DNA of 64,000 bases, from positions 185,821 to 249,820 of IMG/VR virus record IMGVR_UViG_3300044591_002232. The stretch is one strand, 5' to 3'. The stretch's first letter is position 1, and the number at the start of each line of letters is the position of its first letter. The notes beneath the pieces were generated by a model. That model was not told the origin of the DNA and did not search any database. It worked only from the letters and a program-made list of their open reading frames with translations. The stretch comes from a virus. Positions 639-22,176 of the stretch are shown here, in pieces. The position numbers and the translations under genes are program-made.

Positions 639-714
639 AACTGTCCATGAAATTGGATTTCCAATCAAATCTGTCTTATACTCATTCAAGTGAGACAAAT
701 TTTTATGGACAGTT
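639..714 (+). promoter_or_regulatory. Long-range hairpin over the start codon of the Thg1-like gene
   Basis: AACTGTCCATGAAA at 639-652 can pair with TTTTATGGACAGTT at 701-714. That is 14 base pairs including one G-U, and a wobble pair plus an A-T pair can extend the outer end. The loop is about 48 nt. The downstream arm contains the probable ATG start (705-707), so a folded transcript would hide the start codon. A role in translational control is inferred; only the complementarity is seen. Confidence 0.5.
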
Positions 715-1463
715 TAGGAGATCTTCTAAAATCCCAAGAACAAATAGAGGCCGGAAGAAAAGCCGATCCCTTTTTGCCTCTTATGGCAAGAATTGATGGT
801 AAATGTTTTAGCAAATTTACCAAAGGACTCAAAAGACCTTTTGATGCGAAATTTGTAGAGTTAATGGTTGAAACCACCAACCATTTGGTAAATGAAAGTG
901 AGTCTCTTTTGGGTTATTGTCAATCAGACGAGATTACTCTGTATTGGTATCTCGATAAGGGAAATTATTCTAATAGGGAATTCTGGTTTTCAGGTAAGTT
1001 CCAAAAGTTAACTTCTGTTCTTGCATCAACCGCGACCTCATTTTTTGTTGCAAATCTTCAAAAATTTCTTCCTGAAAAAGTGGGTCAATATCCGACTTTC
1101 GATGCAAGGGTTTGGTCTGTTCCTGATTTAGAGCATGTTTATAAAAACTTTCTTTGGCGGTTTAAGGATGCCCAAAAGAACTCCGTTTCAATGTATGCAA
1201 GACATTTCTTTTCTCATAAAAATTTACAGAATAAAACTGGAAACGAAATGAAAGAAATGTTAAAAGAAATTGGAAATCCTTGGGAAGATCTACCAGATTT
1301 CTTTAAATCTGGAACCTATATAAAAAGAAAACGGATCTTGCTTGATCCATCCCAATGCTTAGATGTTCCAGAAAAATACAGACCACTTGAGCCTATTATT
1401 AGAACTACTGTTTCTGTCTGGAACCCACCCGAAACAATTTCACCTGAATGGTTTAACTTATGA
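705..1463 (+). CDS. Thg1-like 3'-5' nucleotidyltransferase (tRNA-His guanylyltransferase family)
   Basis: This 252-residue protein matches the Thg1 family: MARIDGKCFSKFTKG near residues 28-42, then GYCQSDEITLYW near 70-81. The expected two-metal carboxylates are present as D31, D75 and E76, matching D29, D76 and E77 of the human enzyme. Thg1 adds G-1 to tRNA-His, whereas bacterial and phage Thg1-like proteins often repair 5' ends of tRNAs by template-directed 3'-5' addition. The length is close to a typical Thg1. I prefer ATG 705 over the GTG at 690; the ATG sits in a predicted hairpin. Neighbouring tRNA genes (Pro at 338, intron-bearing Arg at 3053) fit a tRNA-maintenance role. The next gene overlaps by 4 nt. 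Confidence 0.85.
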   Translation: MDSLGDLLKSQEQIEAGRKADPFLPLMARIDGKCFSKFTKGLKRPFDAKFVELMVETTNHLVNESESLLGYCQSDEITLYWYLDKGNYSNREFWFSGKFQKLTSVLASTATSFFVANLQKFLPEKVGQYPTFDARVWSVPDLEHVYKNFLWRFKDAQKNSVSMYARHFFSHKNLQNKTGNEMKEMLKEIGNPWEDLPDFFKSGTYIKRKRILLDPSQCLDVPEKYRPLEPIIRTTVSVWNPPETISPEWFNL

Positions 1464-2589: not shown

Positions 2590-3010
2590 AAGGTGGAAGT
2601 CGTTAGGCACATAGCCTAAAAAGACGCCATTTTAGATGGGGCAGCAATTTAATTACTTGCAATGTAAAAAAATCATCTAGTTTTAGTCGTGGTTGAGGGG
2701 CCACATTCAAAATTTTGGAGAAATCCGGTGTTTTGATTAAATCCTAAGTTTTCTTAGGTCGGGGGACTGATCACCCCTGATCCTCTTATTATGGGTTCTG
2801 GGTGGAATTCCCAGTGGTTCCGAAAGGGACTGTCCTCTGTAGGTGCGATACCTACATCCTCCTTTATGGGGGATAAGAACAGCTATTGGAGACCCATACT
2901 AAATAAAACTGATAGCGATCAGTCCTCTGGCGGGCTCTTATGAAGTCCGATCACGGCTGGTCCATCAAAAATAACCCCTTAGACCTAAGTAAAATCTAGG
3001 AATTTTTAGG
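2590..3010 (+). ncRNA. Candidate large structured non-coding RNA
   Basis: This stretch has no protein gene but is unusually rich in clean hairpins. They are TTAGGC/GCCTAA (2603-2619), GTGG/CCAC (2689-2704), CCTAAG/CTTAGG with a TTTT loop (2743-2758), GGGG/CCCC (2762-2777), CTGGG/CCCAG (about 2798-2814), GTTCC with GAAA tetraloop and GGGAC (2817-2830), GTAGG/CCTAC (2839-2855), ATCCTCC/GGGGGAT (2856-2874) and CTGAT/ATCAG (2909-2922). ATGGGTT (2791-2797) pairs with GACCCAT (2891-2897), closing four of these hairpins into one multibranch domain. A promoter lies just upstream and a tRNA just downstream. Large phage RNAs of the GOLLD class sit beside tRNAs in freshwater phage DNA, so that is one candidate; I cannot confirm it by eye. 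Confidence 0.55.
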
Positions 3011-3052: not shown

Positions 3053-3345
3053 GTCTCGTTAGTTCAGTGGATTAGAACAATTGCCTTAAGTTAAACGGAG
3101 CTTCATAGAAGAAATTTTATGAATGTAACTTCTCAAATTCGGGGAAACCTAAGTTCTTTATGAATATGGCAATCCCGAGCCAAGCAAGAGAAATCTTGAA
3201 GGTGTAGAGGCCAGACGGGAAGCATCTAAGTCTTTATGGATATGATGGAGGGATGGTCCAGACCACAAACAATTGGAAGATTGGCAGGGAAATCTGTAGT
3301 GGTACGCTAAGCAATAAGTCGCAAGTTCGAGCCTTGCACGAGACG
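3053..3345 (+). tRNA. trnR(UCU): tRNA-Arg (anticodon UCU) interrupted by a group I intron
   Basis: The exons are 3053-3087 and 3307-3345. Joined, they give a 74-nt cloverleaf. The acceptor stem is GTCTCGT/ACGAGAC with discriminator G3345. The D arm is GTTC-AGTGGATTA-GAAC. The anticodon stem ATTGC/GCAAT encloses loop CTTCTAA (anticodon TCT), and the variable loop is AAGTC. The T arm is GCAAG-TTCGAGC-CTTGC. The 219-nt insert falls between positions 34 and 35. CCA is not encoded. Splicing is required before the tRNA can work. Exon ends follow the group I rule: U before the intron, G as its last base. Confidence 0.9.
3088..3306 (+). ncRNA. Group I self-splicing intron (IC3-like) in tRNA-Arg
   Basis: The core elements are readable in order. 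A P-like segment TTCGGGGAAACCT lies at 3138-3150, and a Q-like segment GGCAATCCCGAGCCAAGC at 3168-3185. An R-like segment GGTGTAGAGGCCAGACGGGA lies at 3201-3220, and an S-like segment ends in GGTCC at 3255-3259. P7 can form from AGGCCA (3208-3213) and TGGTCC (3254-3259). P1 pairs exon CTT with GAG, and P2 pairs TTCATA with TATGAA. The layout and sequence resemble the cyanobacterial tRNA-Leu(UAA) intron as I remember it, which also lies between positions 34 and 35. There is no open reading frame, so no homing endonuclease is encoded inside. Confidence 0.9.
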
Positions 3346-3589: not shown

Positions 3590-3725
3590 TTTATCAGTAA
3601 AACCGCCAGCTTAGGAGTTTGAAAGTTCAATACAATTGTATTTGAGGAGCATTACCTCTTAACTTCATAACTGGCAGAATCGGGGGCAGCACCCGGATTT
3701 CCCACTACAATAAATACCACATAAA
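3590..3725 (+). other. Intergenic stretch with hairpins
   Basis: No gene is seen here. CCAG (near 3609) and CTGG (near 3671) can close a three-way structure containing an ATACAATTGTAT palindrome and a GAGG/CCTC hairpin. A GGGGGCAGCACCC element follows and then the late promoter motif AATAAATA at 3709-3716. It does not fold as a tRNA. Confidence 0.4.
3709..3716 (+). promoter_or_regulatory. T4-type late promoter (AATAAATA)
   Basis: AATAAATA lies just upstream of the reading frames starting at 3726 and 3820, with nothing else that could serve them. Confidence 0.5.
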
Positions 3726-20313: not shown

Positions 20314-20467
20314 TCTAAATGATTTTGAAAAGGGCCTAGGAAACTTTTCCGACCGCGTAGAGATTATTGTTGGCCTAGAAATTGGTGATAAGATTTCTTC
20401 CGATGAGGCTTATAAAATGATTAAAGAAGAGTTTAAAAAACTTAAAAAACTACATACGGAAAATTGA
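20306..20467 (+). CDS. Small helical protein (53 aa)
   Basis: GGAGGA lies 7 nt before ATG 20306 and the gene overlaps the previous stop. The 53 residues run MYDLNDFEKGLGNFSDRVEI, IVGLEIGDKISSDEAYKMIK and a lysine-rich helix. The strong ribosome site and tight packing between two genes support it. No homologue is recognised. Confidence 0.6.
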   Translation: MYDLNDFEKGLGNFSDRVEIIVGLEIGDKISSDEAYKMIKEEFKKLKKLHTEN

Positions 20468-20469
20468 TT

Positions 20470-22176
20470 ATGAGACCAGTTAAAGCAGCCGATCTTCTTG
20501 AATTAGATAAACGTTTACAGACAGTGGTTCTTCAGTGCTACCCGATCCCTGAGCAGGTTATATATCAGGCGGCAAAGTGTGATTATTCTGAAACACCTAT
20601 TCATGAACAAGTAATTCCTTCTCCGGCTAAATGTGGTGAGTGGATTGTAGAAACTCTTTTGGCTAATGATAAGGGTCATTATGGAAGCGTAGAGCATCCA
20701 GCAATCACACTTTCTGTTTCTGGTTATGTTCATAGCGTAATGGTGCAGGCCAGAACTCATCGAGTCGGAGTTACTTTTGACTGCTTAGCAGGAGAAAGTT
20801 TAATTACCGTGAATAAAAGAAAAAAAGTAAAGACTACAACTATTTCTCAGTTGTATGAAATGTATACTAAAGGAGAAGAACTTCCTTTAGTCCGAAGTCT
20901 TAATGAAGATAGGGGTTATTTTGAATATTCAAAGATTGGAAAAGTATTTAAAAACACGGAAAAAGATCTATATCTAGTTACCCTAGATGATGGAAAGCAA
21001 CTAAAGTGCTCAATGGACCACCGAATTTTCACTGAAAATGGATGGCAGCGCCTTAAAGAACTTAGTGTAGGCGATAAGGTATCCTGTAATGGCGTATCTT
21101 TGGCCTTAATTGGTGAAGCCAGGGAAAAGTATACTAATCCAGTTTGGTTGGCGTCAGAATTAAAAACTAAGACGCCAATGCAAATATCTAAGGAACTAGG
21201 AGTCTCTTATGAGGTTATTAAAAAATATGCTTATAAATTTGGGTTAACCTGGGAAATTAGGAAGGACCATAATACTGGTAAAAAACTGGATACCTCTCAT
21301 TTTACCGAAGAGCAAAGAAAATTGCGAAAAGAAAATGCAATTAAAAATATTTCTAAGGCTCATGAAAAAATAGAAGAATGTGGTCATCCTGGTAGAAAAC
21401 ATCCGGATAATACAGAAGTCAGAGTTTATAATTGGCAAAAATATAACAAAGAAAATATTCTGGATCATCATGGAAGGATCTGCTCTAATTGCGGGGCAAC
21501 AACTAAACTTCATTGCCATCATAAAACACCTGTTAAAGAAGACATCAATCAAGCGTATAACATTGATAATTATGAGATCCTGTGCTCTAGTTGTCACGCT
21601 AAAGAACATAAGGCATTAAGGACACACTTTGTTTCAATTTCTTCAATTGAGTTTTTGCGGACTGATATTACTTATGATATTGAGGTTGATGGAAAATATC
21701 ATAATTTTGTTTGCGATGGAGTTGTGGTACACAATTGTCAATCTCAACGCTATACGGGTAAACGAGTATTAAAGGTTGTCAACGACGAACTTCCAGTTGA
21801 AGACGTTTTTTATATTCGTCCTCCAGGGTATTATACAAATCGTCAAGGTAAAAAATATGATTGGACCCTCGCTGACTATAATGATGAATTAGATTTCATT
21901 TATGAGGGGTGTAAGAGATACGCAGCAAAGTATGAAAAGGGGATGTGTGAAGAACACATCAGGGATTATCTCCCACAGGCAATTCGTCAAAACTTTGTAG
22001 TATCCTTTAACCTCAGGTCTGTTCTGCATTTTATGGATCTTCGGGCAAAGATGGACGCTCAATTAGAAATTCAGGCTCTTTGTGCCCAAATGGCGCCTCT
22101 TCTTGAAAAATGGGCTCCTAATGTCTGGAAGTATTATGAAGAAAAACGCCTACATAAAGGTAAATTAGCCCCATAA
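20470..22176 (+). CDS. thyX: Flavin-dependent thymidylate synthase ThyX containing an intein
   Basis: The 568-residue precursor is ThyX (250 residues) split by a 318-residue intein. The extein parts join as QARTHRVGVTFD plus CQSQRYTGKR, giving the ThyX signature (RHRxxSxNxxSxR-like; here RTHRVGVTFDCQSQRY). The insert is therefore in the most conserved site. Other ThyX features are EHPAITLSVSGYVHSVMVQA upstream, and QAIRQNFVVSFNLRSVLHFM plus DAQLEIQALCAQM downstream. The enzyme makes dTMP from dUMP with FAD and methylene-folate. I use ATG 20470; a TTG start 6 nt earlier is possible. It is typical of cyanophage nucleotide metabolism; activity depends on protein splicing. Confidence 0.93.
   Translation: MRPVKAADLLELDKRLQTVVLQCYPIPEQVIYQAAKCDYSETPIHEQVIPSPAKCGEWIVETLLANDKGHYGSVEHPAITLSVSGYVHSVMVQARTHRVGVTFDCLAGESLITVNKRKKVKTTTISQLYEMYTKGEELPLVRSLNEDRGYFEYSKIGKVFKNTEKDLYLVTLDDGKQLKCSMDHRIFTENGWQRLKELSVGDKVSCNGVSLALIGEAREKYTNPVWLASELKTKTPMQISKELGVSYEVIKKYAYKFGLTWEIRKDHNTGKKLDTSHFTEEQRKLRKENAIKNISKAHEKIEECGHPGRKHPDNTEVRVYNWQKYNKENILDHHGRICSNCGATTKLHCHHKTPVKEDINQAYNIDNYEILCSSCHAKEHKALRTHFVSISSIEFLRTDITYDIEVDGKYHNFVCDGVVVHNCQSQRYTGKRVLKVVNDELPVEDVFYIRPPGYYTNRQGKKYDWTLADYNDELDFIYEGCKRYAAKYEKGMCEEHIRDYLPQAIRQNFVVSFNLRSVLHFMDLRAKMDAQLEIQALCAQMAPLLEKWAPNVWKYYEEKRLHKGKLAP
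20782..21735 (+). mobile_element. Intein with HNH homing-endonuclease domain in ThyX
   Basis: The intein starts at Cys (block A, CLAGESLITV) and ends VVVHN just before Cys+1 of the C-extein. Block B is KQLKCSMDHRIFTENGW with the expected histidine; blocks F and G are TYDIEVDGKYHNFVCDGVVV followed by HN. Between the splicing halves lies a helix-turn-helix (TPMQISKELGVSYEVIKKYA) and an HNH domain with C-x2-C pairs: ICSNCGATTKLHCHHKTPV and ILCSSCHAKEH. The endonuclease looks intact, so the element may still be mobile by homing into intein-less thyX. Confidence 0.93.

What the first reader, a model, noticed from the sequence alone, without database searches (positions are those of the whole stretch)
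3053..3345. Group I intron splitting a phage tRNA-Arg(UCU)
The two half-tRNAs assemble into a full cloverleaf only when a 219-nt insert is removed, and the insert has the ordered core segments of a group I intron. It resembles the cyanobacterial tRNA-Leu(UAA) intron and sits at the same position (34/35), but in a different tRNA. The shared CTT before the site would keep P1. P7 pairing is maintained by compensatory changes relative to the tRNA-Leu intron as I remember it. This looks like a host intron that moved into a phage tRNA. A phage tRNA that works only after self-splicing would be unusual.
Basis: partly seen in the sequence, partly recalled or inferred. Interest (0 to 1): 0.88.

Follow-up and report, generated by a model that had tools for sequence, protein, structure and literature searches.

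The report
Self-splicing intron in phage tRNA gene
[quoted passage not shown] more than a hundred other viral sequences show the same arrangement, although the one review I could check says phage introns occur only in protein genes.

Summary
Window 3053-3345 is a tRNA-Arg(UCU) split between nucleotides 34 and 35 by a 219-nt group I intron (3088-3306; Rfam RF00028, 53.6 bits, E 8.6e-11). The same intron, letter for letter, is in a second assembly. Across 37 related phage introns, P1, P3, P7, P8 and P9 pair in 99-100% of cells, with many compensatory changes in P3 and P8; the P7 change is compensatory and shared with several relatives. The phage is a ~250-kb cyanomyovirus (Kyanoviridae-like).

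Split tRNA-Arg(UCU) is common in bacteria (67 loci; already reported for Beggiatoa and Thiomargarita) and in IMG/VR (67 loci). The window's nearest relatives are other phage introns, in tRNA-Arg (75-84% identity) and tRNA-Leu(UAA) (~76%); sampled bacterial introns are more distant, and cyanobacterial ones could not be sampled. Some phage tRNA-Leu introns carry an HNH endonuclease, whose family lies within 1 kb of the intron in 42 of 193 viral and 0 of 115 bacterial loci. A known ribozyme kind in a little-described place. Splicing was not tested.

The parts
3053..3087 (+). tRNA-Arg(UCU) 5' exon (nt 1-34), ending C32-U33-U34
   Evidence: ARAGORN intron mode and spliced sequence
3088..3306 (+). 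group I intron, 219 nt, no long ORF, ends in G (omega-G, 3306)
   Evidence: RF00028 53.6 bits; ARAGORN; three-frame translation shows stops
3307..3345 (+). tRNA-Arg(UCU) 3' exon from C35 to discriminator base G73; CCA not encoded
   Evidence: ARAGORN
3085..3100 (+). P1: exon CUU (3085-3087) with internal guide GAG (3098-3100), U.G at the 5' splice site
   Evidence: 100% of cells paired in 37 phage introns
3102..3123 (+). P2: TTCATAGAA (3102-3110) / TTTTATGAA (3115-3123), GAAA loop
   Evidence: 82% paired, 116 double-change cells; minimum-energy fold
3129..3134 (+). P3 5' strand CTTCTC, pairs with GGGAAG 3217-3222
   Evidence: 221 of 222 cells paired, 83 with changes on both sides; slid controls 41-50%
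3138..3179 (+). P4 (3138-3143 / 3174-3179) with P5 between
   Evidence: 99% paired
3209..3212 (+). P7 5' strand GGCC, pairs with GGUC 3255-3258 (guanosine-site helix)
   Evidence: 100% paired; usual pair is GACU/AGUC, window GGCC/GGUC, neighbour L271 GACC/GGUC
3223..3247 (+). P8 CAUC/GAUG
   Evidence: 100% paired, 31 double-change cells
3262..3303 (+). P9 region: ACCAC/GUGGU enclosing two hairpins
   Evidence: outer helix 100% paired

Best explanation
This is a phage tRNA-Arg gene for AGA/AGG codons whose anticodon loop is interrupted after U34 by a small group I ribozyme. The primary transcript should fold so that exon CUU pairs with the intron's GAG (P1) and a guanosine bound at P7 attacks after U34; U34 then attacks after the terminal G, joining the exons into a 74-nt tRNA that host enzymes finish (CCA is not encoded). 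The intron belongs to a lineage of small tRNA introns that circulates among large phages and has changed tRNA between tRNA-Leu(UAA) and tRNA-Arg(UCU), which share the CUU target. Some members in tRNA-Leu carry, or sit beside, an HNH endonuclease that could drive homing. The window's copy has no ORF, and that HNH family was not found in its genome, so it is probably inherited or was moved by recombination. Shown: sequence, position, conserved pairing, relatives. Inferred: splicing, tRNA function, homing, direction of transfer.
For: RF00028 hit and split tRNA. Pairing across 37 introns, with slid controls far lower in the core helices. Identical intron in L020. Nearest relatives are phage tRNA-Arg introns (L271 83.5%, L294/L290 82%) and then phage tRNA-Leu introns (76%); window with L271 at 99/97; phage tRNA-Arg intron L078 nested among phage tRNA-Leu introns at 100/99. 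One clade of all Arg introns rejected (p 0.010) and one clade of all phage introns rejected (p 0.004). HNH ORFs inside 686-945-nt phage tRNA introns; HNH within 1 kb in 42 of 193 viral loci, 0 of 115 bacterial. Intronless tRNA-Arg(UCU) with 56 of 74 identical exon positions in cyanophages Sf-FS3 and Bellamy. AGA is 56% of 380 arginine codons in 17 large ORFs.
Against: No splicing data. The window intron scores only 3.6 bits above Rfam's cut-off. Rfam's general model did not report the relatives in Atu_ph07 and LR756501 at E<=0.01; their membership rests on sequence similarity, the split tRNA and, for LR756501, the structural alignment. The window's place between phage Leu and Arg introns is weakly resolved in the full tree (support 80). 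Most viral relatives are metagenomic contigs that could include host DNA. The tree set was chosen by a 3' motif, so introns lacking it are not represented. AGA preference is expected in a 38% G+C genome and does not show the tRNA is used.
Confidence: 0.86

Rival explanations
1. Host capture: the phage picked up a host (cyanobacterial) tRNA-Leu(UAA) intron, which then moved into tRNA-Arg.
For: The phage is a cyanomyovirus; the insertion site and CUU target are shared with tRNA-Leu(UAA); phage tRNA-Leu introns are among its nearest relatives.
Against: Nearest introns are in phages. Sampled bacterial tRNA-Leu introns form a separate clade, 99/99. The 3' end GTCCAGACCACAAAC...GTGGTACG is shared with phage and other bacterial introns and, as I remember it, not with the Anabaena intron.
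Confidence: 0.12
2. The whole split tRNA-Arg gene was taken from a bacterium that already had a split tRNA-Arg(UCU).
For: 67 bacterial loci carry the same split tRNA; the phage/bacterial pair L081 and L218 groups at 100/99, so such transfers happen in some direction.
Against: The window's intron lies outside the main bacterial tRNA-Arg clade (37 bacterial rows, 100/99), and the best bacterial match scores 95 bits against 188-205 for the closest phage ones.
Confidence: 0.1
3. A dead tRNA: the intron no longer splices, or the tRNA is a relic.
For: RF00028 score near cut-off; large phages tolerate such insertions; no expression data.
Against: All core helices intact with compensatory changes; exons still form a complete cloverleaf with a 5-bp anticodon stem; the sequence is unchanged in L020, whose flanks differ.
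Confidence: 0.08

Closest known systems
Group I introns in bacterial tRNA-Arg(UCU) (Beggiatoa BOGUAY, Candidatus Thiomargarita nelsonii; PMC4853749)
   Same: Same isoacceptor; that paper also reports tRNA-Leu(UAA) split in the same organisms. In the bacterial loci found here the site is the same, 34/35.
   Different: Cellular genomes. The main bacterial tRNA-Arg introns form a separate clade from the window's. The Beggiatoa and Thiomargarita introns themselves were not fetched.
[quoted passage not shown]
   Same: Site 34/35, CUU/GAG P1, small ribozyme (from established knowledge; not fetched here).
   Different: Different tRNA; sits in host chromosomes and plastids; closeness to the window's intron not tested.
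Phage group I introns in protein genes (T4 td, Twort, psbA of S-SRM01, NAMPT of this same phage)
   Same: Group I ribozymes in phages, some with HNH endonucleases; this genome has one in its NAMPT gene.
   Different: They split protein genes. Hausner et al. 2014 (PMC3984707) state that all phage introns seen to then were in protein-coding genes despite the many phage tRNAs.
Split tRNA-Leu(UAA) in Agrobacterium phage Atu_ph07 and huge phage LR756501
   Same: Phage, site 34/35, related intron.
   Different: tRNA-Leu; apparently unrecognised: the Atu_ph07 paper lists 33 tRNAs by tRNAscan-SE and contains no mention of introns (PMC6102473).

Membership tests
Group I intron (Rfam RF00028) | Covariance-model score above the curated cut-off | tested here: met
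   53.6 bits, cut-off 50, E 8.6e-11
Group I intron (Rfam RF00028) | P3/P7/P8 catalytic core, including the P7 helix that forms a pseudoknot with P3 | tested here: met
   P3 99.5%, P7 and P8 100% of cells paired in 37 introns, with double changes
Group I intron (Rfam RF00028) | U.G pair at the 5' splice site and terminal G | tested here: met
   U34 with G of guide GAG; intron ends ACG. U at the 5' site and terminal G were required when splice sites were assigned in the survey; for the window ARAGORN found the site independently.
Group I intron (Rfam RF00028) | Guanosine-dependent self-splicing | not testable with these tools
   needs in vitro transcription
Group I intron subgroup IC3 | Subgroup covariance model or peripheral elements | not tested
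   no subgroup models available; assignment would rest on resemblance to remembered tRNA introns
tRNA-Arg(UCU) | Complete cloverleaf after splicing, anticodon UCU, A20 and C35 identity bases | tested here: met
   ARAGORN cloverleaf of the spliced sequence; identity bases read from the sequence
Cyanobacterial tRNA-Leu(UAA) intron lineage | Lies in tRNA-Leu(UAA) | tested here: not met
   lies in tRNA-Arg(UCU)
Cyanobacterial tRNA-Leu(UAA) intron lineage | Groups with cyanobacterial introns in a tree | not testable with these tools
   no cyanobacterial genome handle could be reached; bacterial Leu introns of two other phyla are separate
Main bacterial tRNA-Arg(UCU) intron clade | Same tRNA and site 34/35 | tested here: met
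   67 bacterial loci with CCTT|CTAAG or similar
Main bacterial tRNA-Arg(UCU) intron clade | Nested in that clade | tested here: not met
   clade at 100/99 excludes the window; single Arg clade rejected, AU p 0.010
Mobile (homing) group I intron | Endonuclease gene in or beside the intron | tested here: not met
   no ORF in the intron and no homolog of this HNH family in the phage genome

The most novel reading that the evidence does not exclude
Phage tRNA genes carry a widespread, so far undescribed family of mobile group I introns. An HNH endonuclease inside the intron, or next to the tRNA, cuts intronless tRNA alleles in co-infecting phages; the introns also jump between isoacceptors sharing the CUU target (Leu-UAA and Arg-UCU) and pass between phages and bacteria, which makes phages a reservoir of bacterial tRNA introns.
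Probability: 0.45. Interest if true: 0.72.

Novelty: new variant of a known kind. Interest (0 to 1): 0.55.

Why it matters
A 2014 review states that phage introns avoid tRNA genes and explains why; the present survey shows more than a hundred viral loci where they do not. Standard tRNA finders skip these genes, so tRNA sets of large phages are undercounted, and statements about which tRNAs phages lack may be wrong. The HNH association gives a testable route for how tRNA introns spread between phages, between tRNA species, and possibly into bacteria.

Tried and rejected
Gordonia phage Daredevil: ARAGORN proposes a split tRNA-Lys, but no RF00028 match at E<=0.01; not claimed. crAss-like phage hits (Kolpuevirus, cr111_1) lie next to a replicative helicase gene, not a tRNA. 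ARAGORN's split tRNA-Stop at window 31822 lies in a 2559-aa ORF on the same strand and was set aside. B23 also has a tRNA-Arg(UCU) near a tRNA-Pro, but its sequence is not orthologous (40 of 76 aligned columns), so it is not used as an empty site. Relatives of a virus record are not drawn, so cyanobacterial introns could not be reached. A first parse of bacterial tRNA-Leu introns failed from an off-by-one in the splice position and was corrected. Plain folding energy does not separate the gene from shuffles.

Full report
Observation. Window 3053-3345 encodes a tRNA-Arg(UCU) in two halves. Plain ARAGORN finds only tRNA-Pro at 338; intron mode finds the split gene with a 219-nt insert between U34 and C35. 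Rfam's group I model matches 3082-3279 at 53.6 bits, E 8.6e-11 for the 64-kb window. A second assembly, L020, has the same 219 letters, in aligned blocks that are 92-99.6% identical.

Genome. The window is bases 185821-249820 of a 249,820-base virus record. Its baseplate hub protein is 50% identical to Synechococcus phage B23 and 40% to S-SCSM1, and its OprB-SLH porin is 63% identical to S-SRM01: a Kyanoviridae-like cyanomyovirus, so a cyanobacterial host is inferred. ARAGORN finds two other tRNAs in the record, Pro(UGG) and Leu(CAA) (the record was scanned in pieces). A second group I intron, followed by an HNH ORF, splits the NAMPT gene about 2.9 kb before the window. AGA makes up 56% of 380 arginine codons in 17 large ORFs, so a UCU tRNA would be useful, though this is not evidence of use.

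Structure. I aligned 37 non-redundant phage tRNA introns and counted pairs for helices drawn on the window's sequence. P1 (CUU/GAG), P5, P7, P8 and the outer P9 helix pair in 100% of cells, P3 in 221 of 222, P4 in 220 of 222. P3 has 83 and P8 31 cells with changes on both sides. Sliding the 3' strands by one or two bases drops most core helices to 2-66%. In P7 the usual GACU/AGUC is GGCC/GGUC in the window and GACC/GGUC in its nearest relative, L271: a U-A to C-G double change plus an A-U to G.U change. A caveat: splice sites in the survey were assigned by requiring U before and G at the end of the intron, so those two letters are not independent evidence for the relatives.

How common is it? 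A blastn search of 50,697 phage records showed related introns; two records, Agrobacterium phage Atu_ph07 and a 735-kb uncultured phage, have tRNA-Leu(UAA) split at the same site. A tRNA-Arg version of the motif gave 87 viral stretches and at least 115 stretches in bacterial and archaeal genomes. Requiring a complete cloverleaf after splicing left 67 viral tRNA-Arg(UCU) loci (54 at 34/35, 13 at 33/34), 67 bacterial ones (all 34/35), 63 viral tRNA-Leu(UAA), and smaller numbers in tRNA-Asn(GUU), CAU-anticodon and other tRNAs. The bacterial hosts span Bacillota, Pseudomonadota, Bacteroidota, Thermodesulfobacteriota and Chloroflexota. After merging at 88% identity there are 15 viral and 50 bacterial tRNA-Arg types. 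Split tRNA-Arg(UCU) was already reported for Beggiatoa and Thiomargarita (PMC4853749).

Origin. The closest introns to the window's are phage tRNA-Arg introns (L271 83.5%, L294/L290 82%, others about 76%), then phage tRNA-Leu introns (76%); the best bacterial one is much weaker (95 bits). Four of the phages holding the nearest introns, Arg and Leu, also encode the window's hub protein. In trees the window joins L271 at 99/97, outside the main bacterial tRNA-Arg clade (100/99). A phage tRNA-Arg intron, L078, sits among phage tRNA-Leu introns at 100/99, showing a change of tRNA. One clade of all tRNA-Arg introns is rejected (AU p 0.010), and so is one clade of all phage introns (p 0.004); the seven bacterial tRNA-Leu introns sampled stand apart. 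These AU tests were run on groups natural to the question, but after earlier trees had been seen. Cyanobacterial introns could not be fetched, so a deeper cyanobacterial source stays open. Cyanophages Sf-FS3 and Bellamy carry an uninterrupted tRNA-Arg(UCU) that matches 56 of 74 exon positions of the window's, which is what an intron-free relative should look like.

Mobility. Several viral tRNA-Leu introns are 686-945 nt long and contain an HNH ORF starting close to the 5' splice site (Pfam HNH_3 just above cut-off for one and below it for another). A search with this HNH protein finds it within 1 kb of the intron motif in 42 of 193 viral loci, farther off in 7, and near none of 115 bacterial introns. 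The count includes cases inside the intron and cases beside the tRNA, and near-identical contigs were not merged, so it shows association, not a number of events. The window's intron has no ORF and its genome has no homolog of this HNH.

Literature. Hausner et al. 2014 state that all phage introns known then were in protein-coding genes (PMC3984707). The Atu_ph07 paper reports 33 tRNAs without mention of introns (PMC6102473). I found no report of group I introns in phage tRNAs in ten searches, but the library holds only open-licence papers, so this is not proof of absence.

Verdict. A real group I intron in a phage tRNA, part of a broad and apparently overlooked set. Self-splicing, use of the tRNA, homing and direction of transfer are inferences.

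Noticed in passing
window 2735-2980: Strongly structured non-coding stretch upstream of the tRNA (z -3.9, no Rfam match). Its first ~45 nt, two hairpins CCTAAG..CTTAGG and GGGG..CACCCC, recur at about 90% identity near split tRNAs in L274, L316, L258 and L105.
   Followed up: partly
window 3590-3720: A weakly structured, tRNA-like stretch (GCCAG...CTGGC) downstream of the tRNA; also GGGGGCAGCACCC at about 3528 and 3682.
   Followed up: no
G000:C1:182931-183170 (L001): Second group I intron of this phage, in the NAMPT gene, followed by an HNH endonuclease ORF with a NUMOD4 motif.
   Followed up: partly
window 690-1463: Thg1-type tRNA-His guanylyltransferase near the tRNA genes.
   Followed up: no
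window 20464-22176: Single ORF matching HNH endonuclease in the middle and thymidylate synthase at the C-terminal end: possible intein, fusion or insertion.
   Followed up: no
L268 3533-5017, L298 825-2309: Three matches to the window's intron within about 1.5 kb of one viral contig, suggesting several split tRNAs side by side (G013 has three RF00028 matches).
   Followed up: no
L040, L071, L085, L273 and others: Phage tRNA-Arg introns that appear to sit one base earlier (33/34) and begin CAAA or CAAG.
   Followed up: partly
L337 and L336: Dense tRNA clusters (22 ARAGORN calls in L337, 8 in L336) around a split tRNA-Arg related to the window's.
   Followed up: no
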